64,000 nt of DNA from Rhodocyclaceae bacterium (GTDB lineage Bacteria; Pseudomonadota; Gammaproteobacteria; Burkholderiales; Rhodocyclaceae). The notes under the pieces are model-generated. The model was not told the DNA's origin and did not search any database. It saw only the letters and a list, made by a program, of their open reading frames with translations. A program made the translations under genes and the position numbers. Each line of letters begins with the position of its first letter. Within the stretch, counting starts at the first letter, position 1. Below, one piece after another: positions 1 to 38,182 of this stretch. The stretch lies in contig JAEUNL010000064.1 of assembly GCA_016791115.1 (NCBI GenBank), forward strand, positions 62,001 to 126,000, read 5' to 3'.

Positions 1-3000
1 AGAATCGCATCGGCAAGAGCGTCCACGCCGCCCGAACCCGGGAGGTCGATGAGCCCGCCCCAGCGCTCGGGTTGCTCGAGCGCGAACACGCGACCCACGC
101 CCCACAGCGGAGCCTGCCAGCGATCGACATGGTCGGCCTCGCTCACCGCATGCGCACCGCGCGTGATCAGCCATGCCTTACCCCGGCCCGGCGTCGCAGC
201 AAGCCTTGCAAGCAGGCGAAGTGGCTCGGTGCAGGCGAGTCGTTCGCAGGACTCCTGCGCGCCCGCTGCGTCGCCATCCTTCAGTGCGAGCGCACCAAGG
301 TAGACGACGTCTGTGTCGGCGTCGATGCCCGCAACCTCGGCCGCGACGACGCTTACGACCCGATCGCCACGCACTTCGAGTCTCTTCGCGAGAGCGGCAC
401 CAATGCCGTCGTCGTCACCCACGACAGCCCAGCTTCTGCGCGGGGCCAGGGCGCGCGCCATGACGATGGCCTGCTGGCCAGGGCCACGCGCGAGACCGGC
501 CCCGTCGGGACACGTCACGATCTCTTCGAAACCGCGGCGCGCAAGGAGGTCGCGCCATGTCGCGCGGTCGACAAGGGGATAACCAGGACGCAGCCCGGCG
601 TCCACGAACCGCCACCACCCTTCGGTAAGCCCGAAAGTAAGGTCGACCCAGGGCTCGGGCGCCACGCCTTCCAGCAGGAAGATGAGCCCGCCGGGCGCAA
701 GCAGGTCGCGCGCATGCGCGACCGAGGCGCCAAGATCGGCCGTCGCATGCAGCACGTTCGCGGCGACGATGATGTCGTACTGCCCGGCCTGGAATCCCTG
801 CGGAGCCGGATCGCGCTCGATGTCCAGAAGCGCGTACTTCACGAACGGGAAAGCGGCGAACTGCTCCTTCGCGCGCTCGAGGAAGACCGGCGAGAGGTCG
901 GTGAATGTGTACTCGACGCCTTCCGCGGCAAGCTCGGGCAGCACGTAGGTCGTGGTCCCGCCCGTGCCCGCGCCGATCTCGAGGATGCGCAGCTTCGCGC
1001 CGGCAGGCAAGCTCGCGACCGCCTCCCGGATCGCGTATGCGATCGCCCGATTGTACGTGCGCGCGAAGGGCGACTCGACGTAGAGGCTGCGCGCCTCTGC
1101 GAGAGAGCCGTCGGGGAACAGCAGCTGCAACGGATCCTGCGAGCCGTCGAGCACGCGCGCGAGTGCCACACCGCAGCGGCGCAGGGTGCGAAGTTCGCCG
1201 TCGACGGTGCCGAACCGGGCAAGGAGCGCATCGTAGTCTGCGCAAGTATCCGCCGCGTCGAACTGGCCCACGACCTTGAAACCGCCGCCTTCCCGTGCGA
1301 GCACGCCCACCTCGCAGAGGATGTCCAACAAGCGCGCGAAGAGCCGCTCGTGGCGCGCGACGATACGCAGGCGTGCGGCTTCCGAAGTGCGATCGAAGAA
1401 GCGTCCGCGCCCTGCGTCGAAGCCCAGCACCTGCAACGCGGTCGCGATGTGCGCACTGCTCAGGCGATCGAGCTCGGGCAGCAGCGCGGCGTAGATCGCG
1501 AGGTCGTGCTCAGTGGCCAGCGCATCGAAGCGCTCACGCAGCTTCGGCGCGAACCGCGTGGGCGGCTGCAGGGATGCCGCCACCGCTGGCCGCACCGGCG
1601 CGGCTTCCCAGTCCAAGCGGTAGTACAGATCGCCGCCCGTCGTGCGCGCGCCTTCGGCCGCGCACACGAGCGCCGCCTTCGACGCTCGGCGCAGCCTCAC
1701 CTCGCGCATCGTGCCCAGCACAGCGCCATCGGCTCCGCGCAGCGTCACGTCAGCACGCCATTCGGCGGGCCGCGCGCCGCCCGCGCCGTGCAGCCGCACG
1801 TGGGCCCAGCACGCCTCGGGAAGCGGCCGCGGCAGGTCGATTGACTCGACGCCGGTAAGCAGATAGACCTCGTTCGTGTCGCCGCTGTCGGGTAGCGCGA
1901 GGCCGACCGCCTGCAAAGCGCCGTCGACGAGAACGGGATGCGCCCAAGTGACAGGTTCCCTGGCGCTCGTTACTGGAAGCGCGATCCAGGCGAGCGCCTC
2001 GCCGTCGCGGCGCCGTGCGTGTCGCAGCGGCTGGAACGCGGGCCCCAGGTCGATGCCCAGCGCGGCGAGTTTGCCATAGTGCGGCGCGCATTCGGACGAT
2101 GCGCCGAGACGCTGCTCGATGACAGCGAGCGGCTCTTGGGGCGAGGCTTCGCCCGCAACTTGCACGAGGCGACCGCTCGCATTCAGTTTCCATTCGTCAT
2201 CGTCTTGCGCATCGGCCGCGCGGCTATAGACGTTGAACGCCCTGCCTTCACCCGAAGGCTCGGCCAGATGCACCTGCACGACACGGCCTTCTTCGCCGAG
2301 AAACAGGGGCTCGCGAATCGCGAAGCCTGCGACCACGGGCCGTTGCTCTCCGATCGCAGCCGCCGCAGACTGCACCATCTCGATGAACACCGGCCCCGCG
2401 ACGAGCGATGCCCCGTGTACGCGATGCTCGCCCAGCCAAACCGGCAATCGAGGCGTAAGAACCGTTTCGAAAACGGGCAGCGCCACGGGCAGGCGCGCGA
2501 CGACAAGCGGGTTGCTGCCGCCCGGTGGCGCCGCGCGTGTCCGGGACGCCGACGGGCCCGAAGACGCAATCCAGAACTTGCGACGCTCGAAAGGATAGGT
2601 CGGCATCGGCAGCGTGCGCAGGGCGTAAGGCGCGTCCAGTCCCGCCCAGTCGATTGGCGCCCCGTGCACATGGAGTTTCGCCACGCTCGCGAGAAGCTCG
2701 CTCCAGTCGTCCTTGCCGCGACGCAGGGACGAAAGCAGTAACGTCTCATCTTCGGGCAGCGTTCGCTGCGCGAGCGCAAGTAGCGTCGGATGCGGGCCGA
2801 CCTCCAGAAACACGCGATAGCCCTCGCGATAGAGCCAGTTGATCCCGTCGCCGAACCGCACGGGCTCGCGCAGGTGGCGGCGCCAGTAGCGCGCGTCGGG
2901 CGCGCCACTGCCGGGCAGCGCTTCGCCACCCGTCACGTTCCACGCGACAGGAATGGCGGGCGCGCGCATGGTGACTCGCTCGGCCGCGGCCTGCATCGCG

Positions 3001-5309
3001 TCCAGCGCGGGCTCGACCAGTGGCGAGTGCGCGGCGAGCGAGACGTAGAGCCGATGGCCCTGCACCTCGCGCTTCTCGAGTTCCTGCAGCAGCGCCTCGA
3101 CTGCGCGCTCCTCGCCCGAGATCACGACGCTGTCGGCCGCGTTGATCGCGGCGATCGCGACCTTGCCGCCAGTGCCCGCGACCGCCTTTTCGACCTCAGC
3201 GCGATCGGCGAACACCGCCGCCATCGTGCCGCCGGGCGGCAGCGCCTGCATGAGGCGCCCGCGCTCGGCGATGAGCGAGATTCCCTCCTCCAGCGTGAAG
3301 ACACCCGCCGCACACGCGGCGACGTACTCGCCCACGGAATGCCCGATGACCGCCGCCGGCTCGACGCCCCAGCTGCGCCAGAGCGCCGCCAATCCGTACT
3401 CGACCGCGAAGAGGGCAGGCTGCGTCCAGGATGTCTCGTGGATCGGCGACGCTTCGCCCGCGTCGGTCGAGAGCACTGACCTGAGCGTCCTGCCGGCCTC
3501 GTCGGCGCCGAGTTGCGCGTCGCAGCGGTCGATCACGTCGCGGAAGACGGGCGAGGCGTCGTAGAGCGCTTTCGCCATGCCCGGGTACTGGGCGCCCTGG
3601 CCGGTGAAGAGGAACACGACTTCGGGCACGTGCCCGGGGATGGCCTGTCCGCAAAAGACCGCGGGATGCGGCAAGCTCTTCGCGACTGCCCGCAACGCCT
3701 CGCGCGTGCTCATCGCGTCCCCCGCGACCACGGCCGCACGCTCGGTGAAGTGCGAGCGCCCCAGCGCGGCGGTGTGCGCGACGTCGCCCAGGTCCGGGCA
3801 CGGGGTCGCCTCCATCGCAGTTGCCCAGCGCTCGGCGGTATTCGCGAGCGACGCGGCACTGCGCGCCGAGAGCACGATGCAATGCTTCGGGCGCTGAGCG
3901 CGCGGCAAGCCCTCCTCGCGCGGCGCTTCCTCGATGATTGCATGCGCGTTGGTGCCACTGAATCCGAACGAACTGACGCCCGCCAGGCGCGGGCGCACGC
4001 CGCGCTTCCATGGCGCGCCCTGCGCGGTAACTCTTACGGGATAGTCGGCCCACGCAATGTGGGGACTCGGCTCCTTGAAGTGCAGGTGTGGCGGGATGCG
4101 CTCGTGCATGAGCGAAAGGACGATCTTGATCACACCTGCGATGCCTGCGGCCGATTCAAGGTGCCCGACATTGGTCTTGACCGAACCGATGAGGAGAGGC
4201 TGCTCGCGCAGCCGACCGGGACCGAGCGCGCCAGCGAGCGCGCGCACCTCGATCGGATCGCCCAGCGTCGTGCCGGTGCCGTGAGCCTCCACATAATCGA
4301 TGTCGCTCGGCTCCACACCCGCATCCGCGAGCGCCGCCCGGATCACCGCCTCCTGAGCCGGCCCGTTGGGCACCGTGAGCCCGCCGCTGCGTCCGTCCTG
4401 GTTCAGCGCCGTGCCGCGGATCACTGCGAGCACCCGATCGCCGTCGGCGCGCGCGTCAGAAAGGCGCTTGAGAACAACCACACCGCAGCCCTCGCCGCGC
4501 GAGAAACCGTCGGCTGCGGCGTCGAATGTTTTGCAGCGTCCGTCGGGTGCGAGCATGTGCGCTTTGGTGAGCGCCATGGTGGTCTCGACCGAGCACATCA
4601 GGTTGACGCCGGCGGCAAGGGCGACCCGCGACTCGCCTGTGCGCAGACCTTTCACCGCCAGATGCAGCGCCACTAGGGACGAGGAGCATGCAGTATCGAC
4701 CGAAAGTGCGGGTCCCTGAAATCCCATGAAATAGGAGATCCGCCCGGCGACGACGCTGTGCGCGTTGCCGGAAGCGAGATACGCGTCGATGTTGTCGATG
4801 CCGCGGTCGAGCACGCGCTGGGTGTGGTCGATGTTGCAGACGCCGACGTAGACACCCGTATCGCTGCCCGCCAGGCGCTCGGGTGCGATGCCGGCATGTT
4901 CAAGCGCCTCCCATGCCACTTCCATCAGCAGACGCTGCTGCGGATCCATCGTCTGCGCCTCGCGCGGCGAAATGCCGAAAAAGGCCGCGTCGAAGCCGCT
5001 GACGTCGTCGATGAAGCCGCCACAGCGAGTCGACACTCGCGCCGGCGCATCGGGATCCGGATCGAAGAGCGCGTCGATGTCCCAGCGCTCGCGCGGCACT
5101 TCGCGTATCGCATCGCGCCCCTGGTCGAGGAGGTCCCAGTAAGCGTCGATGTCGTCGGAGCCCCCGGGGAAGCGGCAGGCCATGCCCACCACGGCGATGG
5201 GCTCGCGCGCACGCACTTGCAGCGCCTCGACCTGCTCGTGCAGTTCAAGGGCAAGCAATTGCAGCCGTTTGGGCGAGAGCTTTTCGAGCCGATCCTGGAA
5301 GTCGTCCAT
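1..5309 (-). CDS. PKS6: type I polyketide synthase, KS-AT-DH-MT-KR(start), partial
   Basis: Sixth PKS of the operon; its 3' part lies beyond the left edge, so only about 1769 residues are seen. The ATG at 5309 is 7 bp after the PKS5 stop. The N-terminus has a docking-like helix (LSPKRLQLL) and then the KS, with active-site Cys near residue 207 in DTACSSS and both His motifs (EAHGTGT, KTNVGH). The AT has GHSVGE near residue 656; its specificity motif reads LAAH instead of HAFH, so the extender unit is uncertain. The DH keeps His near 959 ([11 protein letters not shown]) and the Asp in LVDGALQ, but Ala replaces the usual Pro of HxxxGxxxxP. A C-methyltransferase follows (GAGTGGTT near 1441, NVLHAT with the His of the proposed His-Glu dyad). 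The last visible part ([11 protein letters not shown]) is the N-terminal structural half of a KR region. Catalytic KR, possible ER, ACP and possible thioesterase cannot be seen. Confidence 0.93.
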
Positions 5310-5316
5310 CTTGTCC

Positions 5317-8300
5317 CTATTTCCTCTTGCCCAGTCGCGCGGCCAGTTGCTTCTCGACCTCTTCGTCGGAGAGATCCTCGATCGAGGCGACCCGGTCCGG
5401 CGTGGACGTGGGCACCGCGGCCTCGGCGAGCCCGAGCACGTCGTTCAGCAGGTAGTCGGTAAGCGTATCGATCGTTGGATAGTCGAAGAGCAGCGTCGCG
5501 GGCAGCGTGCTGCCGACGGCGTTGCCGAGCGTGTTGCGCAGTTCCACCGCAAGCAGCGAATCGAGCCCCAGTTCGCCCAGCGGCGTTCGCGGATCGACGG
5601 CACGTCCCGGGTCCACGCCGAGCGCGCGCAGCGCGCGCTCGCGCACGAAGGCGGCCAGCATCGGCCGGCGGCGCGCGCTCGGAGCCGACTTGATCCGTGA
5701 GCGCAGATCGCTCGCCGCATCGATGCCCGCCGTCGCCTCGGGGGCGGCCTGCGCGAGCCCCGCCACCGCGGCGAAGAACGCAGGTGGCGCACCGCGCTCA
5801 ACGCGCGCGAGGTAGCGCTGCCAGTCGATCGGCAGTACCGCGACCTGCGCACGATCCTGCCCCATGAGGCGCTCGAGCGCGGCCACCCCCTGCTCCGGGG
5901 TGATGCTCGACAGTCCCTGCTGGGAAATGCGCTCGGTAGCGGCACGGTCCACGGCTGCGCCCACCCCGGACCAAGCACCCCAATTGATGGAAAGGCCGGC
6001 GAACCCGCGCGAGCGTCGCTCGCGCGCGAGCAGATCGAGGAAGGCGTTGGCCGCCGAATGGTTGCTCTGCCCGGCAGCCCCCAGGAGCGCGGCGACAGAC
6101 GAGAACAGCACGAAGCCTTCGAGCGGGTCGGTGCGTGTAAGTCTGTCGAGGAGAAATCCGCCGTCGACCTTCGGTGCAAACACACGGGCGTAGCGCCCCG
6201 GATCCTGCTGCGCGAGCGTGGCGTCGTCGAGCACCCCCGCGCTGTGAAACACGCCCCGAAGCGGCGGCCCCGATGTGCGAAGCCGCACGAGAAAGGCGCG
6301 CAGCGCGGCCTCGTCCGATACGTCCAGCGCCTCAGCCACCACGTTGCCACCGAGCGCACGAAGCGTGTCGAGCAGTGGTGCCGATTCGGGCGTCACGCCT
6401 CGCCGGCTCACCAGCGCGATGCGGCCGGCCCCGCGTTCGATGAGCCACTTTGCGACCACCGGACCCAGACCGGACAGGCCGCCCGTCACGAGATACGTCC
6501 CGTCGCGCCTGGCTACGAAGGGCTCGGGGGCGCCGTGCCGCAGCACGATCTTGCCGGTGTGGCGCGCCTGCGCCATGAAGCGGAATGCGCGCGGCGCGTC
6601 GTCCAGCGCGAACACATGGCGCGGCAGCGAGACAAGATCACCCGAGCGCAGGCGCTCGGTCAGGCCGGTGAAGAGCCGTTCAATCAACTCCGGCTCGCGC
6701 GTGGCGGTATCGCCCCAATCGACCACGAAGTAGCGCCAGCCGCGCTTCTGCTGCTCGACCCATTCCGGCGTCTTGATCCCACGCTTGCCCATCTCGACGA
6801 ACCGTCCGTCCCGGGCGAGCACCGAGAAACTCGCTTCGACGGTATCTCCCGCGAGCGAGTTCAACACCACATCGACACCGCGCCCGCCGGTGGCCGCCGC
6901 AATCTGCGCGCCGAACGCGGCGCTGCGCGAATCGAACACGTGCACTACCCCCAATGCGCGCAACAGGTCGCGCTTGGCCTCCGAGCCAGCCGTTGCATAA
7001 ATTACCGCGCCGGTGCGAAGGGCGATCTGTACCGCTGCCATGCCGACGCCGCCCGCCCCCGCGTGAATCAGTACGCGCTCGCCTGGGCGCAATTGCGCAA
7101 GATGGTCGAGGCAGAAGAGCGCCGTAAGGAAGGCAATTGGAAACGCAGCGCCCTCTTCCGCACTCATGCCCTCGGGCCGCGGCTGAACGAACTCCAAGCG
7201 CGTTGTCACATGCGTCGCCAAACACCCTCCGCCCAGGCCCATCACGGCGTCGCCCACGCGCAGGCGCGCAACGCCCGGCCCCACTGCAGCGATACGCCCC
7301 GCGCATTCGCCGCCCAGAGGCCCCGGGTCGCCCGGATACATGCCCAATACGTTGAGTACGTCCTTGAAGTTGATCCCGCTCGCCTCGATGGCGATCTCGA
7401 CCTCGCCGGGTCCGGGCACGCGGCGCGAGAGTTCCCGGCGATGAAAGCCGTCGAGGGATCCTGCAGCAATCGGCAGAAGGCGAAACGGGGAAGCATCCGC
7501 AACGGCCATCGTGCGCGGCACACGGGCAAGCCGCGCGACCCGCCGCATGCTGCCTCTGAGCGCCACTTGCGCCTCGGCGCCTGACTCACCCAGTTCGGCC
7601 ACGAAGGCGTCAAGCGCGCCTTCGATCGAGTTCGGTTCGAGGTCGACGCATACTGCGCGCATCTCGGGATGTTCGAGCGACAGTGCCTTGCGCAATCCCC
7701 AGACGGGCGCCTGAGCGGGATTGATCGCGACGTCCGCGGGATCGGCCTGCTGCGCGCCGGCGGTCACCATCCACACGCGCGAGCCCAAGCCGGCACCCGC
7801 AAGCGCCTGAGCCGCGAGCATCGCGCTCACTGCGCCCAGCTCGCTTGCACCAGCGAGTTCGGCGAGACCCACGTCCTTCCAATCGGGTGTGTCGAGCGAC
7901 CACGCGTGCACGATGCCGACCGGCACACGGCCTGCAGCACGAAGCTCCGCCAACAGGCGGGCGTGATCCGCGGCAGACGTCGGCGTAATTGTCGCGGCGT
8001 CGCCTTCGAGCGTGTAACGCGCGCCAGGCTGCACCAACGTGCAGCGATCGCCGCGCGCAGTGAGTCGCCGGGCGATCCCCGTGGCTAGCCCCTTCGTGTC
8101 GGCAAAGATGAGCCACTCTCGCATTGCCGTATGCAGATCATCTGCGACCTGAGCAATCAGCAGCGTGTTCAAACCGATCGCACCCGCTTGCGCGACATCA
8201 CCCGCGACCGTCGATGCCGCGCCGAAGCCACACTCCCCGAGAAGCCTGACCCAGGAAGCGACGGGAAGCGTCGCGTAATCGGGCCGAAGCTCGCGATCCT

Positions 8301-11300
8301 CGAAGCACCACCAGCCCTCGGTAAGGCCCACGGTGAGATCGAACCATGCCTGCGGAACGGTCGCTTCCAGCAGCGCGAGCGCCCCACCGGGCGCGAGCAG
8401 CCGGCGAACCCGGCCGAGCGTCGTGCGCAGATCACGGGTGGCATGGATCACGTTGGAAGCGACGACCAGATCGAACGCGCCCGCCGCGAATCCCTGAACC
8501 TCGGGATCGCGCTCGAGGTCCAGAACCTCGAAGCGCATAAAGGGATGCATGCCGAAACGTTCGCGTGCGCGCGCGACGAAGAGCGGTCCCACGTCAGTGA
8601 AGGTGTATTCGACGCCTTCTAGCGGAAGGCGTGGCACCACGTGCGCCGTAGTGCCTCCCGTGCCGGCACCCACTTCGAGAATGCGCAGCTTCCGGCCTGC
8701 CTGCCTCGCCCGCGCAGCGGCTGTCGAGACCGCTTCGGCCACCAGCCCGTTGAAGAAGCGCGCGGGCGGTGAGTCGCGATAGATGCGCTCTGCGGTCTCT
8801 GTCTCGCCGCCGGGAAAGAGGAGTTGAAGCGGGTCGCACTCCCCGCGCAGCGCGTTCGCGAGATCGGGACCGGCGCGGCCGACCATTTCGAGCTCGTTCG
8901 CGATCGGCAGCAAGCTTGCGCGCATCGCGGCGAGCACGCGCGCCGGATCGGCACCCGCAAGATCACGCTTCACGACCCATCGCGCGTCCTCCTTCGCGAG
9001 CCACCCGGCTTGCGCCAGGAGCGAGAGGAAGCGGCCGAATAGCTGGCGGTGGCGTACCACGACATGCAGCTCACGCGCCAGGGCTCCCTCATCGAAGAAC
9101 GTTCCCACCTTCGGATTCCAGCCGAGGTCCGCCAACGCCTTGCGGATGAAGTCGGCACAGAGTGTGTCCATTCCCGCAAGACATGCATCGAAGGCCGGCA
9201 GACCCGCGGAAGCGCGTAGCGGTTCGACTGCGGCCTGCGCGGCTGACACCATCTGCGACACAGGCACCGCCTCTCTGGACGCCGTGCTGCCTGCCGCATC
9301 CTGCCAGAGCACTTCATAAAGGCTTTCGTCTAGCCAGCGCTCGCCGAGTCGGTCGAGCGCGTCGCGCGAAACGCGCTTCAAGCGGATGTCCGTCAGGTCC
9401 GCGAGAAGTTCGCCGCCCTCGTCGAATACCCGAAGTTGCGCGCGGCGCGTTGCCGCGCCCGTGCCGGGCTCGGCAACCGCGTGCGCCCAGCAACGCTCGG
9501 CGCCCCTGCGATGCAGCGTGTATGCGCCGATCGCCATTGGCAGGTAGAGATCCTCGGTGTCGGACACCAGCGCGGCCGCGAGCACCTGCACGCAGCCGTC
9601 GAGCAGCACCGGATGGATGTTGTACGCAGCACCTTCGCGCCGCAGATCCGCGTGCAGAACGATGCTGCCGAGGGCTTGCTGGTTTCCGGACATGAGCTCG
9701 CGTACGGAGCGGAATGCCGGGCCGAAGCCCAACCCGCGGCGTTCGAGCTCCTGATAGAACGCATCACGATCAAAGGCTTGCGGGCAAAGTAGTCGGGCCT
9801 CGGCAAGTGAGGCCCGCGACGCAGCCGGGTTCGATGCCGCACCGCCAAGGGTCGCGGTCACGTGGCAGATCCAGTCGGCGTCTCCGTCCGCATCTTCGGC
9901 GAGACTGCACACGCGCGCGCTTGCCGTGCCGCCGCCCGCGCGGTCCACCACGAGCTGCACGGTACGCGCGCTATCGGCGTTGAGGCGCATCGCCTCCTTA
10001 ATGGTTACATCGACGATCGGGTGCATGCCGGCGCCTAACACATCGCCCGCCGCGGCGAGCAGCATTTCCAGCCAACCCGTAGCCGGCATTACCACGTGGC
10101 CCTGCACGCAATGCTGGGCGACAAAGCGCGGCACTTCGATGCTCATGCGGCTCTCGTACACCTTCCCCGCAGCGGAGCGGATGCGCGTGCCCAGAAGCGG
10201 GTGGCCGGTTGCGCGGCCCGGCACCGCGGCCGGCCGAGTGCGCGCCGCGAACCAGCAGCGCTCGCGCTGGAAAGGATATGTGGGAAGCCCGACGCGCCTC
10301 GCCGTCTCGCCCGCGTGGACCGCGCGCCAATCGATGTCGATGCCCTGGAGCCATGCCGATGCAACCGCGTCGAGTATCTGCGCGCGTTCGGGGCGGTTCC
10401 GGCGCAGCGTCGGAACGCGTGCCAACGAAGCATCACCGAGCGCGGACTCGATAAACGCGAGCAGTGCCGGGTGTGGGCCAACTTCGATGCACACGTCCGG
10501 ACGAAGACGCACGAGTGCCTGTGCTCCGTCGGCGAATCGCACGGCTTCGCGCGCGTGGCGCCGCCAGTAAGCGGGCTGCATCATCGCGGCAGGATCGGCT
10601 ACGTCGCCCGTGAGGTTCGAGACGAGGCGAATTCGCGGCTTCGACCACGCAACTTTTGCAGCCGAGCGCTCGAACTCTGCGAGCATCGGATCGAGCAACG
10701 GCGAGTGGAACGCGTGCGAGACTGTGAGCCGCTGGCAGCGCACGCCGCCTTCTTCGAACTGCCTGCACACTGCTTCGACCGCGTCCGCCGTGCCCGAAAT
10801 CACGGTCTGGTCGGGCGCATTCACCGCCGCAATCGCGAGCTTCGCCATCTGGCCGGCGACGACCGGCTCGATCTCGGCGGCCGGCACGTGGATCGCCGCC
10901 ATCGCACCGCCCGCCGGCAGCCGTCCCATGAGGCGCCCGCGCTCGGCAACGAGGCCAAGCGCATCCTCGAGGCTCATCATGCCGGCCACGCACGCGGCGA
11001 CGAGTTCGCCCACCGAATGGCCCATCACCGCCGCCGGCGTGACGCCATATGACTTCCAAAGCTCGGCGAGCGCGTACTCGACCGCAAATAGCGCGGGCTG
11101 CGTATATTCGGTGCGATCCAGCAGCGTCCCCTCACCCTCGGCCGGATAGAGAACTTCCAGCAGCGGCCGCTCGAGCCTGCCCTCGAGCGCCCTGGCGCAG
11201 CGGTCGAGCGCGGCGCGGAACACCGGTGCTGATTCATAGAGTGCGCGTCCCATGCCGGCGTACTGTGAGCCCTGCCCGGTGAAAACGAATGCGATGCGTG

Positions 11301-13007
11301 GCGGATCGCGGCGCTGCATTGCAGCTGTGCGGACACCCGGTGTCTCTTCGCCGCGGGAGAGTGCGCCCAGACGCTCCCGCAGCTCCTGCAGACTCGCGGC
11401 CGCAATGGTGGCGCGATACGCGAAATTCGCCCGGCCGACGTTGGCTGTGAAGCACGCGTCCGCGAGTGACGGCGCGTCGGGCCGCGCAAGCGCCTCTGCG
11501 TGGCGCGCGGCCAGCACGCACAACGCCTTCTCGTCGCGCGCCGAGAGCGTGTAGAGCGAATCTCCCGAATTGGTCGCCGCCGCCGGGTCGCCCTGCGGCG
11601 CTTCCTCGACCACGACGTGTACGTTGGTACCGCTGAATCCGAATGAGCTCACGCCCGCCAGGCGCCGTCCTCCGATCGGCTCCCACACCTGCGACTTCGT
11701 CGGTACCGTGAAGGGCAGTTCGGCCCACGCGATGTGCGGGCTCGGCTGCTTGAAGTGCAGATGCGCGGGGATCTCGCGGTGTTGCAACGCCAGCACCACC
11801 TTGATCAGTCCCGACACGCCTGCGGCGGCTTCGAGATGCCCGAGGTTAGTCTTGACCGAGCCGAGCCACATCGGCTGCGCCGGATCGCGACCTGGGCCAA
11901 AGACGTTACCGAGCGCCTGCACCTCGAGCGGGTCGCCAAGCTGCGTTCCCGTGCCGTGCGCCTCGAGCAGCCCGATGTCGGCGGGCGTGACCCGCGCGCG
12001 CGCGAGCGCCTCGCGGATCACGGCCTCCTGCGCTGGGCCGTTGGGCGCGGTGAGCCCGCTGCTCGGGCCATCCTGGTTGACGGCGCTGCCGCGGATCACC
12101 GCGAGGATGCGGTCGCCATCAGCCTGCGCCTCCGACAAACGCTTGAGCACCACGACACCGCAGCCCTCGCCGCGCGCGAAGCCATCGGCGGACGCATCGA
12201 AGGTCTTGCAGCGTCCGTCGGGGGCCAGCATGCGCGAGTGCGAGAAGGCAACAAAGAGGTCGGCCGAGAGCATGAGGTTCACGCCGCCGGCGAGCGCCAT
12301 CGAGCATTCGCGCGCGCGCAGCGCCTGGCAGGCGAGATGCACCGCGACAAGCGATGACGAGCACGCGGTATCGACCGTGAGGCTCGGTCCCTGCAGTCCG
12401 AGGAGGTACGATATGCGTCCCGAGGCGACGCTTTGTGCGACGCCCGAGGTGTAGTGCGAGTCGAGCAGGCCCGCGTCGCCGCTCTTGATCTGCAGGTAGG
12501 CGTAATCGGTGGCGCAGACGCCGACGTATACGCCGGTGGCCGAGCGCTCAAGCCTGTCCGGGGCGATCCCGGCGTGCTCGATCGCCTCCCAGCTCACCTC
12601 CAGCAGCAGACGCTGCTGCGGATCCATGCCGTTGGCTTCGCGCGGCGCGATGCCGAAAAACGCGGGGTCGAAACGATCGACCTCGCCGGTCAGGAACCCG
12701 GCCTCGCGGACCGCAATGCGACCCGGAATCTCGGTATCCGGGTCATAGTACGCGTCAATGTCAAATCTGCTCCGCGGCACCGGCCCCACGGCATCGCGCC
12801 CCTCATGCAGCACGCGCCAGAAGCCCTCGGGATCGTCGCCGCCGGGCACCCGGCAGCCGATGCCGATTACCGCGATGGGCTCGCGCACCGCCTCTTCGGC
12901 ACGCGCCAGTCGCGCGCGCGCGTCCTCGAGCGCGAGGAAGGCGCGCTTCAGCGGCGAGAGCTGCACGGCCTCGGCCGGCGTCCCGGGCGGCAACGCGGGC
13001 GTCGTGT

Positions 13008-13011
<4 letters not shown>
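5317..13011 (-). CDS. PKS5: type I polyketide synthase, KS-AT-DH-MT-ER-KR-ACP
   Basis: The protein has 2564 residues and is a complete single module with every reductive domain plus a C-methyltransferase, an order best known from fungal highly reducing PKSs and some bacterial lines. KS Cys lies near 215 (DTACSSS). AT Ser lies near 665 (GHSVGE) with HAFH near 765, predicting malonyl-CoA. The DH has an intact HCVQGHVVMP near 969 and LLDGCVQ. The MT has GAGTGGTT near 1449 and NVIHAT. The ER has the nucleotide loop HAGAGGVG near 1984. The KR has VTGGLSGLG near 2177, but its active-site segment reads GQSNHSAAN: His stands at the position of the catalytic Tyr. The ACP has GLDSLL with Ser near 2484. 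N-terminal LSPLKRAFLALEDARARL and C-terminal LSDEEVEKQLAARL look like docking elements. The ATG overlaps the PKS4 stop as ATGA. Confidence 0.95.
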
Positions 13012-17395
<4,384 letters not shown>

Positions 17396-17399
<4 letters not shown>

Positions 17400-23300: not shown

Positions 23301-23844
23301 CCAGCGGTTGCGTTGAGCGTGTTTCCCGAGACGATGTAGGCGTCCAGCTCGGAGTCACGCAGCCGGCGCGTGAGCAGGTGCAGATAGTCGGAGGTCGTGG
23401 TGCCCACAAAGACGCCTGTGCGTGTGCCCTTCAGGCTCGAAGGCGGGATACCTGCGCATTCGAGCGCCTCCCAGGTGACTTCGAGGAACAGACGCTGCTG
23501 CGGATCCATGAGCTGCGCCTCGCGACCTGCGATGCCGAAGAATTCGGCGTCGAAGCCGTCGACGCGGTCTAGCAACCCGGCCTTGTGGACCACGTTAATG
23601 TCAGCCGGCGAATGCCGGGCGGCATCCCAGCGCTCCGAGGGAATGTCGCGGATCGCATCTCCACCGGTTCTAAGCAGCTCCCAGAATGCCTCCGGGTCAG
23701 GCGCTCCAGGCAGGCGGCATCCGAGACCTACGATCGCAAGGGGCTCGGTGCGCGCGGCCTCCATCTGCTCGACCCGCTCGCGCATGCGGCGCAGCGCCTC
23801 GAGGGCCTGGCGTTGCAGATCGGGCGAATCGTTTCGCGGCGCAC

Positions 23845-23848
<4 letters not shown>
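17396..23848 (-). CDS. PKS3: type I polyketide synthase, KS-AT-DH-ER-KR-ACP
   Basis: The protein has 2150 residues and a fully reducing domain set without a methyltransferase. A predicted N-terminal coiled coil (LEALRRMRERVEQMEAAR) leads into the KS (Cys near 201, DTACSSS; EAHGTGT; KSNVGH). The AT has GHSVGE near 651 and HAFH near 751, predicting malonyl-CoA. The DH keeps His near 952 (HSFNGRSVWP) and LLDGCLQ. The ER has HSAAGGVG near 1573. The KR has VTGGFGALG near 1760; its active-site segment is FSAGAAWLGNPGQANYAAAN, where Tyr and Asn are present but the residue 13 before the Tyr, normally the catalytic Ser, is missing (Ala-Gly where Ser is expected). The ACP Ser lies near 2063 (GMDSLM). 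The C-terminal tail MSETEAEAELLREL is docking-like. The ATG overlaps the PKS2 stop as ATGA. If the KR is inactive, DH and ER would have no substrate, so this change matters. Confidence 0.95.
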
Positions 23849-29705
<5,857 letters not shown>

Positions 29706-29709
<4 letters not shown>

Positions 29710-32700
29710 GATGGCGTTGCCCCCTTGAGCAGCTCGCGCGCCTCTTCGTCGCTCATCCGCTCGATGTCGTCAATGAGTGCGTCGAACTCGGAATCGGCGG
29801 CGGCGATGGAAGCGGCCGGCGCGGGAGCGGCGGGCGCGTCGAGCGCGACCTGCAGGCGCTCTGCCAGGTGCTCGGAGAGCGCGAGGACGGTCGGATAGTT
29901 CCAGGCGAGGGTTGGCGAGAGCGGCACGCCGCCGCGCTTCTCGAGGCGGTTGCGCAGTTCGAGCGCCATCAGCGAATCCAGCCCGAGGGACTTGAGCGCG
30001 CGGTCGGAGGGCACACGCTGCGGGACCATGCGAAGCACCGCGCCCACCTCGGCCTTGATCGCGCTCTCCATCAGCGCGCGCCGCGGCGGTCCGGGCGGCA
30101 ACGCCGCGAGCGCGTCGCGAAGCGCGGGCTCGGCCTCGCGCGTCGCGTCGGCGGCCTCGGTGCGCTCGACGAGGTCCAGCACGTCCTCGCGCCCGAGGGC
30201 GGCATTCCAGCGGCGCGCGTCGAACTCTGCGCACACGGCGTACGCGGCGCCGGCGGCGATCAGGCGATCGATCGCTTCGATTGCAGTCGCGGCCTCGATA
30301 CCCGCGAAGCCGAGGCGGCGCAGAGAGTCTCCGCGAACGGCGGATGCCGCTGCCAGGCCCACCGCGGCGACGGGTCCGAACGCCACCGCCAGCCCGGGCT
30401 TGCCGCGCGCTTGCCGGTGCTGCGCGAGCGCGTCGAGGAAGGCGTTCGCCGCGGCGTAGTTGCCCTGGCCCGGCGTGCCGAAGAGCGAGGCGACCGACGA
30501 GAACATCACGAACGCGTCGAGCGCGTCGCCTTCGGTCAGGCGATCGAGGTTCCACGCGCCCATCACCTTGCCGTCGCGCGGCGCGCGCAGGCGCTCGGGC
30601 GTCATCTCGCCCACCGTCGCGTCCGCGAGCGTGCCCGCGGCGTGGAAGACGCCGCGAAGCGGCCCGCCCTCGCGGCGCGCCCGCTCCAGCGCGGCGGCGA
30701 GCGCCTCTCGATCGGCCACGTCGCATGCGGCGGTAAGCACCCGTGTGCCGGAGGCCTCGATTTCGCGAAGCTCGCGTTGGGCCGCCGGCGTGGGCGCGCC
30801 GCGGCCGAGCAGCATCACCGCGCCCGCGCCGCGGCGCGCGAGCCACCGCGCCACTTCGAGCCCGAGCGCACCGAGGCCGCCGCTCACGACATAACAGCCG
30901 TCGCCGCGGACCCTGGATCGCAGGTACGGGGCCGCGCGCACCCGCGCGGGCGCGGGCTCCAGCGACACCACGTGCTTGCCCACGTGAATGCCGGGCATCA
31001 GATCCTTGAAGGCCGCGACGAGATCGTCGGCGGCGAACGTCTTCACGGGAAGCGGACGATACTTCCCCGCTTCGAGGTCGGCCATCAGCTCGCGCAGCAT
31101 CCCCCCAAGGAGCGCAGGACGATCGTGCATCATCCGGTCGAGGTCGACCGCGAAGTACGCGAGGCCAGCGCGGAAAGGCCCAAGCTCCACGCGCGTGCCG
31201 CCGTAGATGTCGCGCTTGCCGAGCTCGACGAAGCGGCCGTACGGCGCGAGGCATTCGAGGCCCGCCGCGATCGCGTCGCCGGCGAGCGAGTTGAGCACGA
31301 CGTCCACGCCCCGCCCGTCCGTCGCGGCGCGCACCGCGCTCGCGAAATCGCCGCGCGAATCGAACACGTGGGCGACGCCCATCGAGCGCAGCAACGCGCG
31401 CTTCTCCTCGGTGCCCGCGGTCGCCAGCACCTCGGCGCCCGCACGACGCGCCACCTGCAACGCCGCGAGCCCCACGCCACCTGCAGCGGAGTGGACGAGT
31501 ACGCGTTCCCCCCGCTCGATTCGCGCGAGGTGCACGAGAGCGTAGATCGCGGTCAGGAATGCGATGGGAGTACCCGCCGCTGCATCAGAGGCAAGGCTGC
31601 GCGGCTTGGGCGCGACGAGATCGCCGTGCACCGGAGCGTGCTTCTGCAGGCAGCGATGGCCAATCGCAACGACCTCGTCGCCGGGACGCACGTTCGTTAC
31701 CGATGCGCCGACGCGCACAATCCGACCGGCGCATTCGATACCGAGGGGGCCGCGTCCGTTCTCGTAGCCCGGATACACGCCGAGTGCTGACATGAGGTTC
31801 ATGAAATTGAGACCGGCGTGTGCAACCTCGATCTCGACCTCGTGCGGCGAAGGCTCGAGGCGCAGCGCCGCCTGCCAATGCAGTGTGTCCGGCTCTCCGG
31901 GCGAGGAAATCTCCGCCCGTAGGCTCGGCGGGTCTGCGTCGTAGGCAGTGTCCTCATCCTCCTGCAAAGGCGACAATCGCAGGCGCAGCCATCGGCCGCC
32001 GCGCAACGCGAGCTGGCGCTGCGGGGGCTTCGCGCGAACGAGACCGGCGAGCGCCGGGGATCCGTCGGCTTCGAGGTCGACGAGCGTCACGTCCAGGCCC
32101 GGCTGCTCGTGGGCCCACACCCGGCCGAGCCCCCACAGTGCAGAGGCACCGAGTGCGGGCACGCTGTCTGCCTCGCCGGCTGAGACCGCGCCGCACGTGA
32201 CGAGCCAGACACGCGCGGGCGTACCGCTCGCAACTTGCCCGAGTCCGTGTGCGAGAGCGAGCGTATCGTCCCCGGCCTGACGCCAAGCCGCCTCGATCCA
32301 GTCGAGACTGTCGCCCACCCCGGCACACTCGAGCGCCCCCATGTGCACGATCTGCGCGCGCGCGCTCTCGCCTGCAAGCGCGGCGAGCGCGCGTGGCACC
32401 GCATCGCCCGAAGTCACATGCACGCTGCGCACGCCCCCCGCCGCGAGCGCCTGCATGAGCGTCTGTGCCGTATCGGCGGACGGGCAAACCACGACCACCG
32501 TGCCTATCGCAGCTGTCGCCGGACCGGGATCTGCGTCGATCCATTTGGCGCAATGCAACAACCCATCGAGGTTCGCCGCGCCCGACTGGCGCAGGCGCTC
32601 GAAGACGACGCCGCGCATCGCTGCGAGCAACTCGCCGTGCGCGTCGTGGATATCCGCGTCGCCGGAGGCGCGCGCGAAGGTAACGCTGAGTGCTGCATCC

Positions 32701-35700
32701 ACGGGAAGCGGACGCAGCAACTCCAGTCGGCCGATGCGGGTGGGAATCGGCGTCGCAGAATCGCTTGGCTCGCTCTGTAGAATCGCCCCCGCAATTGCCT
32801 GAAGCGCGGCGTCGAGAACCGGCGGAAACGCCACATAGCGCCGGGCGCGCGGATCAAGCGTTGCAGTATCGAGCTGCACGCTAGCCACGCCCTCCGCGTC
32901 TCCGAGTTTCATCTCCCGAAGGCCGCGGAAAGCAGGGCCGTAACCGAGCCCTGCCTCGTCGAGCATTGCATAAAGGTCGTCATGCGACAAGGTTGCAGCG
33001 TTCCCGCTCATCGGCGCGATTGGCGCCACGTCATCGGCGGCGACTACAACCCCTGTGGCGCGTCGCTCCCAGCGCTCGTCCTCGTCGCCACCTCGCCCAT
33101 AGACGTCGAAGCGCGCGTGATCTTCGCCGCTCCATTGCAGGCGGACCTGAAGGCGCGGCGACGTGCCGGGCGGAACCGCCCAAGCGTCAAGGAACTCGAC
33201 GTGCGCAAGCGCCCAGCGTTGCGTGCTCCGCGACTCGGCTGCGGCGGCAAGCGCAGCCTCACAATACCCGACCCCAGGGAAGAGCACCGAACCACGCACT
33301 CGGTGATCGGCGATCCACCCAAAGCGCGTCGGCGCGAGCATGGTCTCCCAGCAAGCCCCGCCTTCCGCAGCCGGATCGAAGCGGCGCTCGAGCAGCGGAT
33401 GCTGCGAGGAACGCGCCGCGTCGACGACGCCCGCCGCCGCGGTCTGCGAGGCGGCCTCCGTCCAAAGGCGCTCGCGCTGCCACGGATACAGCGGCAACGA
33501 CAGCCTCGGCTGGCAATCAGGCATGAGCCGGTTCCAATCGACGGGCAGGCCGGCGCACCATGCCGCACCCACGGCTGCGAGGAACGTGGCGAGCTCGGGC
33601 TCCTCGCGGCGCCCGCACGCGATCGCGGTCACGGATTCGCCGCAGGCCTGCGCGGTTTGCTCGATCGATTGCACCAGCACGGGATGAGGACCCAGTTCGA
33701 CGAAAGTCGTAATCCCGTCCTCAATCAGGGCCGACACGGCTTTCGAGAACATCACCGGCTGTCGCAGGTTGCGCGCCCAGTATCCGGCGTCGAACTCGCG
33801 GCCCTCGGCCTTGCGTGCGAAGACGGTCGAGACGATAGCCATGCGCTCGGAGCGTGGCTGCAGGTTAGCGAGGTCTACCTCCAGCTCGCGTGCGAGCGGC
33901 TCCATCTGCGGGCTGTGCGATGCGACGTCTACCCGCACGAGTCGGCAGAAGATTCCGTCGCGCTCGAGCTCCGCGATCACCGCGGCAACGGCATCCGGAG
34001 CGCCCGAAATCACACTAGACCGCGGGCTGTTGCTGACTGCGACCGAGACCTCGGTTTCGCGCCCGCACAGGCGGACACGCGCGTCGTCCATCGAGAGATC
34101 GACCAACGCCATTGCGCCCATCCCGCTCGTGCGGCGCATTAGCGCGCTGCGGCGGCAGATGATCCGCATTGCCTGTCCCAAGTCGAGAACTCCGGCGATG
34201 TACGCAGCGCCCACTTCGCCCATGCTGTGTCCCACAACCGCAGCCGGCTCGATGCCGAGCGAACGCCACAGATTCGCATAGGCGATAGCGATGGCGACCA
34301 GCACGGGCTGGATCACGTCAATCTCTTCGAGGCGGAACGTCCCGTCCCCTGGATTGGCCGTCAGTTGCTCGACGAGCGACCAGTCGGCATAAGGACGCAT
34401 CGCCCGGTCGCATTCCTCCAGCGCCTCGCGAAAAACTGGCTGCTCGCGAGAAAGCTCTCGCGCCATGCCGAGCCACTGCGCGCCCTGCCCCGGAACCACA
34501 AAGCACACGCGCCTCGGCGCCCCGTCCGCCGCAACTTCAGCCGGTGCGGCCGCGCAGCCCTCGGCGTAGTCGCGTAGAGAATCAATGAGCGATTCGCGGT
34601 TGCGCGAGACGAAAAAGGCGCGGTGCGACAAGGCCGTTCGCCGAATGGAGGCATTCCAACACAGCGCCTCGATCGGCACCTCAGGATGCGCCTCAGTCCA
34701 CTCAGCATAGCGTCGCGCGAGCGCCCGCAGCGACTCCGGGGAGCGCGCCGAAAGCACCAGCAGATTCGCCACCGCCGGGTGGACGGCTGACGGCACGCGC
34801 ATAAGCGCGGGCGCTTCCTCAAGCACGACGTGCGCATTCGTGCCCCCGATCCCGTAGGCACTCACGCTCGCAACGCGCGTAGGAGACCCTTCGGCTTTCG
34901 GCCAGTCTATGATCTGTGTCGCGATCTTCAGCGGCAGGTCCGACCAAGGGATGGTCGGATTCGGCTGGTTGAAGTGCAAGCTTGGCGGGATGGCACCGTT
35001 GCGCAGGACGAGCGCGGCCTTGATGAGACCAGCGACACCCGCAGTGGCCTCGGTGTGTCCGATGTTGGTCTTGATCGAACCGACCCAAGCGTGCCGCCCG
35101 GGCTCGCGGCCCTCGCCCAACACCTGGGAGAGCGCGCCAAGCTCGACCGGGTCGCCCGCGCGAGTTCCCGTACCGTGGGCCTCCACGTAGCCGACCGCCG
35201 CCGGAGCGACGTCGGCATCGTCGTAGGCCTGTCGCAGCAGTTCAATCTGTCCGATGCGGCTAGGCCGCCCCATAGAACCGCTGCTGCGGCCGTCGTTGTT
35301 CACGGCGCTGCCCCGGATTACGGCGTAGACATGATCGCCGTCGCGTTGCGCCTTCTCGAGCGACTTAAGCACCACGACGCCCACGCCCTCGCTACGTACG
35401 TAGCCGTTTCCGCTTGCATCGCCGAACTTGCAGCGCCCGTCAGGCGCCATCATCCGGCTCTGCGAATAGGCAATGTGGATGTGCGGCTGAAGAATTAGGT
35501 TGGCGCCGCCCGCCAGCGCGAGCTCGCACTCGCCCGCTCGCAGTGACTGCACAGCGAGGTGCACGCACGCGAGACCGCTTGAGCAGGCCGCGTCGATCGA
35601 GAGGCACGGCCCGCGCAATCCAAGTACGTATGAAAGTCGTGCGGCGGCACCATAGCGGCCGCTGCCCATCGTCATCGGAAAAGTGATGCGATCGGGATCT

Positions 35701-36122
35701 GTAAAGACGCGATTCTCGAAATCACTAGTCCACTGCCCCATGTACACTGCGGCGTTCGTGCCCTCAAGCGCCGCGATGTCCTCGCCGGCATCGTCCAGCG
35801 CCTCCCAGGCGGTCTCGAGCAGCAAACGTTGGTGCGGGTCCATGCACTCCGCCTCGACCGGCGCGATGCCGAAAAAGCCTGCGTCGAGTTCGTCGATGTG
35901 CGAGAGGAATCCGCCCCAACGCGTCATCATGCGGCCAGGCGTCGCGGGACGCTCGTCGAAGAAGCGGTTAAGGTCGATGCGGTCCGCGGGAATCTCTGAG
36001 ATGGCGTCGCGGCCCTCGAGGAGCATTCGCCAAAAGCCCTCGGGGTCTTCGACCCCGCCCGGAAACCGGCACCCGATGCCGACAATCGCGACTGACCGGC
36101 GGTCCCGCAGCGCGTCGCTCAC
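29706..36122 (-). CDS. PKS1: first-module type I polyketide synthase, KS-AT-DH-ER-KR-ACP
   Basis: The protein has 2138 residues. Unlike PKS2-PKS6 it has no N-terminal docking helix: the KS begins at about residue 9, which fits a first module that does not receive a chain from an upstream PKS. The KS Cys180 sits in an unusual DAACSSG (others have DTACS); His306 and His346 are present. The AT has GHSMGE (Ser613) and VASH at 713-716, closer to methylmalonyl-type ATs than to HAFH. The DH has His920 in HRVRGSVLFP and LDAALQ. The ER has HSAAGGVG. The KR begins near 1742, with Ser1876, Tyr1889 and Asn1893 all present. The ACP Ser is 2050 (GLDSLM). The C-terminal tail MSDEEARELLKG is docking-like. 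There is no loading module; the starter must come as acyl-CoA or from an unseen acyl-ACP source. The start is GTG, overlapping the thioesterase stop as GTGA. Confidence 0.95.
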
Positions 36123-36895
36123 GATGGGATACCTTCGTACGTAAGGCGGCCGACGATCTCCCCGGCAATCAGTGAAAGTTCGCTCAGCACCTCAGACGGT
36201 CTTTCCTGGAGATAGAAGTGGCCGCCGGCGAACGATCGGACGCGAAACGCCGCTGCCGTCTCGCTGCGCCAAGCCTCCAGATGCGCCCGCGGTACCAAGC
36301 GATCCTGCTCGCCACCGAAAACCGTGATTGGCATGGGCAACGGAGCCCTCGAACATGGCTGGAAAAGCTCAAGCGCTTCGATGTCGGCGCGCAGGCTTGG
36401 CAACAACAACGCCATCAAGTCTGGCTCGGCCCGAACCTCCTCCGGAATGCCACCGTACCGGCGCTCTATTTCAGAAATGAATGCCTGATCGTCGAGCAGG
36501 TGTATTGGCGGTTGCATATCTGGCACGTGAGGAGGGCGCCGCGCCGATACGATAAGTTGCTCCGGCACCGATTCGCCACGTGCAGCCAGAACCCGCGCGA
36601 GTTCGCACGCAACAACCGCACCCATGCTGTGGCCAAAGAACACGAACGGCCGCACGCAGTGCGCAGCCAGACGTTCTGCCAGCAAGCCTACCAGCACCTC
36701 AATGTTTCGCACCGGTGCTTCACCGAATCTGCCTTCCCTGCCGGGCAATTGAACCGCGCAAACCTCGACCGAAGGAGGGAGACCCGCATGCCAGAGCCGA
36801 TATGCAGACGCCCCTCCTCCCGCATGCGGGAAGCAGAACATTTTGAGTCGAGCGTCCGGTCGTTTACAGAACGTCCTGACCCACGATGACTGCAT
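36119..36895 (-). CDS. Type II thioesterase (stand-alone alpha/beta hydrolase)
   Basis: The protein has 258 residues and belongs to the editing thioesterases that accompany PKS/NRPS lines; they hydrolyse wrong or stalled acyl groups from carrier proteins in the cytoplasm. Evidence: CFPHAGGGASAY near the N-terminus (oxyanion region), nucleophile Ser in GHSMGA near residue 90, Asp in GGEQDRL, and His in GGHFYL near the C-terminus. The ATG at 36895 is chosen because a strong ribosome site (GGGAGGAG) lies just before it; a TTG 18 bp upstream would put that site inside the gene. It is the first gene of the overlapping thioesterase-PKS chain. It is not a chain-terminating domain, so product release must be elsewhere. 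Confidence 0.9.
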   Translation of the reverse strand: MQSSWVRTFCKRPDARLKMFCFPHAGGGASAYRLWHAGLPPSVEVCAVQLPGREGRFGEAPVRNIEVLVGLLAERLAAHCVRPFVFFGHSMGAVVACELARVLAARGESVPEQLIVSARRPPHVPDMQPPIHLLDDQAFISEIERRYGGIPEEVRAEPDLMALLLPSLRADIEALELFQPCSRAPLPMPITVFGGEQDRLVPRAHLEAWRSETAAAFRVRSFAGGHFYLQERPSEVLSELSLIAGEIVGRLTYEGIPS

Positions 36896-36917
36896 GAAGG
36901 CTCCTCCCACCAATTGG

Positions 36918-38126: not shown

Positions 38127-38182
38127 GCGCAAAGGATATAGGCGTAAGCAAGATTGAGCATGGGCAAGGAGTGGAGCGAGGG

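What the first reader, a model, noticed from the sequence alone, without database searches (positions are those of the whole stretch)
1..36895. Six-protein, one-module-per-protein PKS line with four C-methyltransferase modules in a betaproteobacterium
Seen: PKS1-PKS6 each hold one module, and PKS2, PKS4, PKS5 and PKS6 carry a methyltransferase between AT/DH and the KR/ACP part, each with the NxxHAT motif. Known: C-MT domains are frequent in fungal and trans-AT PKSs and less so in cis-AT bacterial lines. Inferred by co-linearity: unit 1 reduced, unit 2 alpha-methyl beta-hydroxy, unit 3 reduced, unit 4 alpha-methyl beta-keto, unit 5 alpha-methyl reduced, unit 6 alpha-methyl. I do not recognise a described cluster with this domain order.
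Basis: partly seen in the sequence, partly recalled or inferred. Interest (0 to 1): 0.75.

Follow-up and report, generated by a model that had tools for sequence, protein, structure and literature searches.

The report
Cross-phylum polyketide-peptide line with inserted module
The window shows the front part of a ten-protein assembly line that probably builds a methyl-branched polyketide joined to glycine and valine; related lines occur in distant bacteria, and this one seems to have gained one chain-building step by an insertion inside an older module.

Summary
But six is where the window ends. The same contig carries on with an EamA transporter, PKS7, NRPS1 (glycine-like), PKS8, NRPS2 with thioesterase (valine-like) and a cyclic-peptide-type ABC exporter: 8 PKS plus 2 NRPS modules, all PKS modules cis-AT. 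Eleven fetched relatives (Hydrogenophaga, Rhizobacter, Rhodocyclales, Phaeobacter, Chloroflexota and others), picked for similarity, share the order of the three C-MT modules. Ten paper searches showed no description of the family; MIBiG could not be searched. Against the sisters, PKS4 to PKS8 match whole modules. PKS2 and PKS3 look like one ancestral module opened between AT and DH: PKS2 has its KS-AT, then an MT-KR tail of module-5 type; PKS3 has a KS-AT that fits module 6, then an ER, ACP and tail of the ancestral type. A copy of the line's own module 5/6 junction could be the insert. This would explain the fourth C-MT and predicts one more ketide and methyl than in the sisters. Insertion is favoured, not proved: several domain trees do not decide. 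Interest moderate: an orphan family of a known kind with an instructive natural rearrangement.

The parts
37257..38132 (-). Sfp-type 4'-phosphopantetheinyl transferase (carrier-protein activation)
   Evidence: Pfam ACPS 2.1e-16; a PPT hit also lies within the fetched stretch of 5 of 11 sister clusters
36119..36913 (-). type II thioesterase (editing)
   Evidence: Pfam Thioesterase 4.3e-47; a TEII lies at the front of the line in 10 of 11 sister clusters
29706..36122 (-). PKS1, KS-AT(VASH)-DH-ER-KR-ACP, first module
   Evidence: 10 aa before the KS, no docking coil; KS-AT of sister module-1 type (66% identity over 885 aa to Rhodocyclales M1)
23845..29709 (-). PKS2, KS-AT(YAFH)-MT-KR-ACP; mosaic: KS-AT of sister module-2 type, MT-KR of module-5 type
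17396..23848 (-). PKS3, KS-AT(HAFH)-DH-ER-KR-ACP; KS-AT not of module-2 type (fits module 6), ER/ACP/C-tail of module-2 type
13008..17399 (-). PKS4, KS-AT-MT-ACP (C-methylates, no reduction) = sister module 3
   Evidence: 54-56% identity to 5 proteobacterial sisters
5317..13011 (-). PKS5, KS-AT-DH-MT-ER-KR-ACP = sister module 4
1..5309 (-). PKS6, KS-AT-DH-MT-KR-ACP = sister module 5; cut by the window edge (full gene C9:60680-67309; window = C9 minus 62000)
25720..26757 (-). C-MT domain of PKS2 (NVLHAT)
13500..14567 (-). C-MT domain of PKS4 (NAVHAT)
8137..9228 (-). C-MT domain of PKS5 (NVIHAT)
435..1592 (-). C-MT domain of PKS6 (NVLHAT)

Best explanation
This is the front of a cis-AT hybrid PKS-NRPS assembly line of ten modules on ten proteins, in gene order PKS1 to PKS7, NRPS1, PKS8, NRPS2-TE. 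Each PKS module adds two carbons; PKS2, PKS4, PKS5 and PKS6 each add one methyl from SAM. Read in order, the predicted thioester is starter-CH2CH(X)-CH(OH)CH(Me)-CH2CH2-C(=O)CH(Me)-CH2CH(Me)-CH=C(Me)-CH2CH2-CO-Gly-CH(OH)CH2CO-Val (the Gly carboxyl carbon being the CH(OH)), released by a thioesterase with Cys in place of the usual Ser, either as an acid or as a ring (22 members if the PKS2 hydroxyl attacks), and probably exported by the neighbouring cyclic-peptide-type ABC exporter. Shown: domains, motifs, gene order, likeness to sister lines. Inferred: starter, AT substrates (X), amino acids, order of use, ring. The line belongs to a family shared with distant bacteria. In this lineage an ancestral module 2 (KS-AT-DH-ER-KR) was most likely opened at the AT/DH junction and a [MT-KR-ACP | KS-AT] stretch inserted, giving PKS2 plus PKS3, one more ketide and one more methyl; the last NRPS, its thioesterase and the exporter also differ from the sisters.
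For: Domains. Active-site motifs: (several '-' or 'no' entries there are limits of my patterns; KS8 has TACSTS). Docking: PKS1 has 10 aa before its KS, PKS2-PKS7 have 32-44; PKS7 and PKS8 end in REEMTL and REELEF and each precedes a TubC_N NRPS. Exporter passes TIGR01194 (440.2 vs cut-off 286.2 bits). A-domain codes DILQLGMIWK and DALWLGGTFK (position rule and Gly/Val labels recalled). TE: Cys aligns with the Ser of 7crn. Family: 11 of 11 fetched sister clusters have modules 3, 4 and 5 in this order. Split: KS, PKS2 with sister M2 not rejected (AU p 0.38), PKS3 with M2 rejected (0.0036); AT, PKS2 with M2 not rejected (0.76), with M5 rejected (0.0046; and 0.007 for the Rhizobacter-type M5), PKS3 with M2 rejected (0.0048); PKS3 ER beside M2 ERs (92/90); PKS2 KR with module-5 KRs (96*, quick tree); window map with leave-one-out control. 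KS of PKS3 with module 6: the held tree is slightly better than the free one (p 0.57). Tail: NRPS2 at most 39% to sisters and GC 0.60, ABC 0.56, against 0.65-0.69 for the ten other genes measured.
Against: PKS3 DH and KR do not decide (KR with M2 0.35, M6 0.35, M6b 0.49; DH with M2 84 unstarred, with M6b 0.51); ER with M6 is only weakly disfavoured (0.08); the ER support of 92/90 is not starred. KS of PKS3 with M4 is not rejected either (0.38), and KS of PKS2 with the Rhizobacter-type M5 is not rejected (0.12). PKS2 has the same domain string as the Rhizobacter M5 modules, which are its best end-to-end hits (40%). PKS3 windows after the AT best match M2 in only 10 of 16, and margins in the KS parts are small. 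Groups for the AU tests were named after seeing quick trees, and the free AT, DH and KS searches missed better trees. Motif departures: PKS6 DH has Ala for the Pro and PKS7 DH Ser for the Gly of HxxxGxxxxP; NRPS1 C domain reads DHIVSDG and NRPS2 HHIIADN (sequence). Starter unexplained; no loading module seen. Nothing shows expression or a product.
Confidence: 0.68

Rival explanations
1. Reverse polarity: the ancestor had the extra module and the sisters lost it, a deletion fusing the PKS2 front to the PKS3 rear.
For: Trees of the parts are the same for insertion and deletion; CH71 also has an extra front module.
Against: All 11 fetched sisters, from Beta- and Alphaproteobacteria and Chloroflexota, have a single DH-ER-KR module right before module 3; the PKS2 KR sits beside the module-5 KRs of betaproteobacterial sisters, as expected of a local addition.
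Confidence: 0.17
2. Separate events: PKS2 is a module-5-type copy (or had its tail overwritten by one), and PKS3 is a duplicated module-6-like protein whose ER-ACP part was converted towards M2.
For: KS-AT windows of PKS3 match M6 best in 7 of 12, M5 in 3, M4 and M3 in 1 each; KS of PKS3 with M6 p 0.57; DH and KR do not reject an M6b origin; PKS2 has the domain string of Rhizobacter M5 and KS with that M5 is not rejected.
Against: Needs two or more events; AT of PKS2 with either M5 group is rejected (0.0046, 0.007); the C-terminal tail of PKS3 is M2-like as well.
Confidence: 0.25
3. Assembly chimera or decayed cluster in a draft genome.
For: The genome is a 73-contig draft, 92% complete.
Against: Each gene is one open frame; no near-identical repeats between PKS1-PKS6; the order of modules 3 to 7 recurs in other assemblies.
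Confidence: 0.05
4. The modules act iteratively or alone, like fungal highly reducing PKSs.
For: Domain order KS-AT-DH-MT-ER-KR-ACP resembles fungal HR-PKSs (recalled); the lovastatin synthase MT is among the solved relatives.
Against: Docking ends in order, positional conservation of modules, NRPS and TE at the end.
Confidence: 0.05

Closest known systems
Sister lines in Hydrogenophaga borbori LA-38, Hydrogenophaga sp. CS4-C022 and bin-2, Rhodocyclales MAG NC_groundwater_1816, Pseudomonadota MAG USSF (no description found)
   Same: Module 3 to 6 order, EamA, Gly-type NRPS and, in four of the five, a KS-AT-KR module. NRPS1 66-69% identical in all five; PKS6 and PKS7 59-62% in four (H. borbori is not among the best six)
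   Different: Single module 2; three C-MTs; last NRPS Gly-like and 1103-1131 aa, with no hit to my one-sequence TE profile
Rhizobacter Root1238/OV335, Phaeobacter 22II1-1F12B, Ca. Chloroploca Khr17, Chloroflexota MAGs CH71 and ANAER1
   Same: Modules 3-4-5 in order
   Different: Other NRPS tails, split operons in Phaeobacter and ANAER1, extra front module in CH71; module 5 without a detected DH in the two Rhizobacter
Curacin line of cyanobacteria (CurJ C-MT, CurL KS-AT)
   Same: Best solved relatives of the C-MT profile (5thy, 1.9e-115) and of PKS4 KS-AT (4mz0); cis-AT, one-module proteins (recalled)
   Different: Different chain and tailoring (recalled)
Cys-nucleophile NRPS thioesterases ObiF and SulM
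   Same: Cys as nucleophile (passages of PMC11298585)
   Different: Motif GTCFG here, not the Gln-Cys-Asn of SulM; neither name is among the 32 PDB hits at E up to 1e-5, so close kinship is not claimed

Membership tests
cis-AT modular type I PKS | KS, AT and ACP within each module | tested here: met
   8 of 8 PKS proteins
cis-AT modular type I PKS | ordered, non-iterative use of modules | not testable with these tools
   docking ends and order agree, no biochemistry
PKS-NRPS hybrid | C-A-PCP modules beside PKS modules in one line | tested here: met
   NRPS1, NRPS2 with TubC_N, C, A, PCP
PKS C-methyltransferase (CurJ type) | sequence relation to CurJ MT and NxxHAT with conserved His | tested here: met
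trans-AT PKS | modules without AT | tested here: not met
   AT in 8 of 8
Cyclic-peptide export ABC transporter (TIGR01194) | score over NCBIfam cut-off | tested here: met
   440.2 vs 286.2 bits
A characterised MIBiG cluster | same module order and known product | not testable with these tools
   no MIBiG copy; paper searches only
beta-lactone/beta-lactam forming TE (ObiF, SulM) | Cys nucleophile plus substrate with beta nucleophile | tested here: inconclusive
   Cys present; substrate unknown; Gln-Cys-Asn of SulM absent

The most novel reading that the evidence does not exclude
A natural cis-AT PKS in which one ancestral module was opened at the AT/DH junction by insertion of a [MT-KR-ACP | KS-AT] stretch, so that the front of the old module (docking, KS-AT) and its rear (ER, ACP, tail) now sit on two proteins and the chain gains a C-methylated ketide. 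Because the MT-KR part is of module-5 type and the KS-AT part fits module 6, the insert may be a copy of the line's own module 5/6 junction, placed by one recombination between AT/DH sites. The sister lines serve as the before-state, giving a testable natural rule for where PKS modules accept new units.
Probability: 0.5. Interest if true: 0.65.

Novelty: new variant of a known kind. Interest (0 to 1): 0.5.

Why it matters
A PKS-NRPS core kept in the same order in Pseudomonadota and Chloroflexota, with no product known to me, is a good target for product discovery, and four of the 11 carriers examined are cultured-looking records rather than MAGs by title (H. borbori, two Rhizobacter, Phaeobacter). 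If the split-module reading holds, it is a natural example of module accretion inside a cis-AT module; one paper says there is less evidence for such recombination in cis-AT than in trans-AT evolution (PMC9899208, passages), and a review says that crossover sites within modules may also have been used (PMC11907408, passages). It could guide where engineers insert units.

Tried and rejected
Trans-AT PKS: rejected, AT in each of the eight PKS modules. A broken downstream NRPS: the apparent break near C9:42001-42100 came from 100 bases that I had not fetched; after NRPS2 reads through in one frame. O-antigen-type genes left of the exporter: left out of the cluster. C-MTs as such: not pursued as unusual. 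PKS1 reductive loop: I first read it as a swap; the ER of PKS1 groups with that of CH71 module 1 (100/99), so a fully reducing module 1 may be old. tblastn of PKS4 and NRPS2 against plasmids gave only best places under 60% identity. In 61 genomes of relatives no listed match outside the own genome aligned with the whole of PKS4; the best full KS-AT matches were 36-40% identical (list cut). Paper searches, ten of ten: (8 papers; Chloroploca + polyketide synthase, 0; GABOB and others, 0), 63, 66, 71: no description of this family in the titles and abstract starts listed; I read found passages of three papers, no whole paper. Structure prediction was not used.

Rows dropped or weak: of 79 loci I chose 12 genomes by similarity and neighbourhood and fetched clusters from 11 (the 16-kb Xanthobacteraceae contig was left out), so 'k of 11' counts are not an unbiased sample. 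The ORF picker lost module 3 of H. borbori and Rhizobacter Root1238 and shows no module 1 for the USSF line; the two module 3s are seen. The KS test set left out ANAER1, Chloroploca and Root1238; the KR, DH and AT sets also left out CH71. KR, DH and AT trees used the simpler model (mixture=False). The M2 profile left out HydCS4 (assembly gap) and ANAER1. The leave-one-out control works for two proteobacterial sisters (Rhodocyclales 177 of 180, Phaeobacter 155 of 177 windows) but poorly for Chloroflexota (CH71 113 of 189, Chloroploca 90 of 165; sums mine); other sisters were not run.
Full report
What is in the window. The minus strand between 38132 and the left edge carries a phosphopantetheinyl transferase, a type II thioesterase and six PKS genes whose ends overlap or nearly touch. 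All four MT domains keep NxxHAT; their profile is closest, among solved structures, to the C-MT of CurJ of the curacin line; the KS-AT part of PKS4 is closest to CurL. Right of the transferase lie housekeeping genes (PNPase, TruB, IF-2, NusA).

The line does not end with the window. The window is C9:62001-126000 of a 3.97-Mb draft genome in 73 contigs. To the left follow the rest of PKS6 (2209 aa in full), an EamA transporter (C9:59802-60683), PKS7 KS-AT-DH-ER-KR-ACP (53323-59805), NRPS1 TubC_N-C-A-PCP (49934-53326), PKS8 KS-AT-KR-ACP (45352-49929), NRPS2 TubC_N-C-A-PCP-TE (41002-45273) and an ABC exporter (39323-40999) that passes the NCBIfam model for cyclic peptide export.

How it most likely works. 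PKS1 has only 10 residues before its KS, while PKS2 to PKS7 have 32 to 44, as expected if PKS1 starts the line. PKS7 and PKS8 end in REEMTL and REELEF, and each precedes an NRPS with a TubC_N docking domain; in sisters the KS-AT-KR module ends in REEIEF in 4 of 5 and REEFIL in one, and the module-6 protein in REEMTL or REELTL in three, with other endings in the rest. ATs of PKS3, PKS4, PKS5, PKS7 and PKS8 carry the HAFH motif (malonyl by the usual rule, recalled); PKS1 has VASH, PKS2 YAFH and PKS6 LAAH, which I leave open. A-domain codes read by alignment are DILQLGMIWK (Gly-like) and DALWLGGTFK (Val-like) (positions and labels recalled). Read in order this gives starter, reduced unit, alpha-methyl beta-hydroxy, reduced, alpha-methyl beta-keto, alpha-methyl reduced, alpha-methyl enoyl, reduced, Gly, beta-hydroxy C2, Val. 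The terminal thioesterase has GTCFG where 7crn has GWSLG, so Cys stands at the nucleophile; Cys is the less common choice, known in ObiF and SulM (PMC11298585, passages). Release as a ring fits the exporter but is not shown. No loading module was found, so the starter is unknown. Some motifs depart from the rule: PKS6 DH has Ala for Pro and PKS7 DH Ser for Gly in HxxxGxxxxP, and the C domains read DHIVSDG and HHIIADN.

A family across phyla. The best are Hydrogenophaga borbori (58%), Rhizobacter Root1238 (60%), another Hydrogenophaga (56%), a Rhodocyclales MAG (58%) and a Xanthobacteraceae MAG (54%), then Phaeobacter and Chloroflexota. Of 12 genomes chosen among these, I fetched 11 clusters. 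Modules 3 (MT only), 4 (DH-MT-ER-KR) and 5 (MT-KR, with DH in 9 of 11) stand in this order in 11 of 11; a DH-ER-KR module precedes module 3 in 11 of 11; a TEII lies at the front in 10 of 11; EamA occurs in 10 of 11. The first A domain reads Gly-like in 8 of 11. In the KS trees modules 1, 2, 3, 4 and 7 of the proteobacterial lines group by position and not by species; modules 5 and 6 do so for the two Hydrogenophaga MAGs, USSF and Rhodocyclales lines, while those of H. borbori, Rhizobacter and Phaeobacter form groups of their own, and several Chloroflexota modules group among themselves. The line is patchy: the PKS4 MT finds a match at E up to 1e-40 in 7 of 297 genomes of the family and 5 of 399 of the order, own genome included, and of these one other, at 57% identity, looks like an ortholog; its contig and place agree with the Rhodocyclales MAG. 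This suggests transfer or repeated loss.

Where this line differs. I cut PKS1 to PKS8 into 150-residue windows and scored them against profiles of each sister module. PKS4 matched module 3 in 18 of 19 windows, PKS5 module 4 in 34 of 34, PKS6 module 5 in 29 of 29, PKS7 module 6 in 26 of 28, PKS8 module 7 in 20 of 20. PKS2 matched module 2 in 10 of 11 windows starting at 1 to 751 (small margins in the KS, larger in the AT) and module 5 in 12 of 13 windows starting at 901 to 1801; one window between them is a near tie. PKS3 matched module 2 in 0 of 12 windows starting before 900 (module 6 in 7, 5 in 3, 4 and 3 in 1 each) and in 10 of 16 after, including the ACP and C-terminal tail. Leaving a sister out of the profiles, 177 of 180 windows of the Rhodocyclales line and 155 of 177 of Phaeobacter returned to their own class, but only 113 of 189 and 90 of 165 for two Chloroflexota.

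Trees agree in part. KS of PKS2 with module 2 is not rejected (AU p 0.38), KS of PKS3 with module 2 is (0.0036). AT likewise (0.76 and 0.0048). AT of PKS2 with module 5 is rejected for both groups of module 5 (0.0046, 0.007); KS of PKS2 with them gives 0.042 and 0.12. KR of PKS2 groups with module 5 (96*). KS of PKS3 fits module 6 (0.57, the held tree slightly better), but module 4 is not rejected (0.38). ER of PKS3 stands beside module-2 ERs (92/90, not starred); placing it with module 6, with the Rhizobacter/H. borbori/Phaeobacter module 6, or with module 4 gives 0.08, 0.028 and 0.046. DH and KR of PKS3 do not decide. The groups were named after first trees had been seen, so these p values flatter. 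The YAFH motif, found in the module right before module 3 in 9 of 11 sisters, is in PKS2 here, two proteins before PKS4. The simplest account is that an ancestral module 2 was opened between AT and DH and received [MT-KR-ACP | KS-AT], perhaps a copy of the line's own module 5/6 junction; deletion in the sisters or stepwise conversion remain possible.

The tail also differs: NRPS1 is 66-69% identical to five sisters, NRPS2 at most 39%; GC is 0.60 for NRPS2 and 0.56 for the exporter against 0.65-0.69 for the ten other genes measured. In 3 of 9 sisters whose downstream ORFs I read by eye, two alpha/beta-hydrolase-like ORFs follow the last NRPS (no family search).

Verdict. Real and of a known kind (cis-AT PKS-NRPS hybrid); undescribed as far as ten paper searches and my recall go, which is not a MIBiG search. 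The point of interest has moved from four C-methyltransferases to a widely shared orphan line and a probable natural split module within it.

Noticed in passing
C9:29469-38984 (L001:7469-16984), left of the exporter: Polysaccharide-type genes (sugar C-methyltransferase, epimerase, nucleotidyltransferase, PIG-L deacetylase, glycosyltransferase, DUF4910, ABC-2 and Wzt-type exporter parts), probably a separate O-antigen locus.
   Followed up: partly
38271-39047: 258-aa ORF between the transferase and a lytic transglycosylase without any Pfam or NCBIfam match at E up to 0.001; may not be a gene.
   Followed up: no
L110:13013-14910, L114:11178-12940, L117:15492-17263: Two adjacent alpha/beta-hydrolase-like ORFs follow the last NRPS in three sister lines without a TE hit (read by eye); they may release the product.
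   Followed up: partly
G070:C150:27792-39885 (Chloroflexi CH71; L115): Two front modules whose ATs both carry VAAH: an extra module-1-like unit in another lineage.
   Followed up: no
C9:41002-41862 (L004:3002-3862, NRPS2 TE): Thioesterase nucleophile is Cys (GTCFG) where the aligned solved NRPS TE 7crn has Ser.
   Followed up: partly
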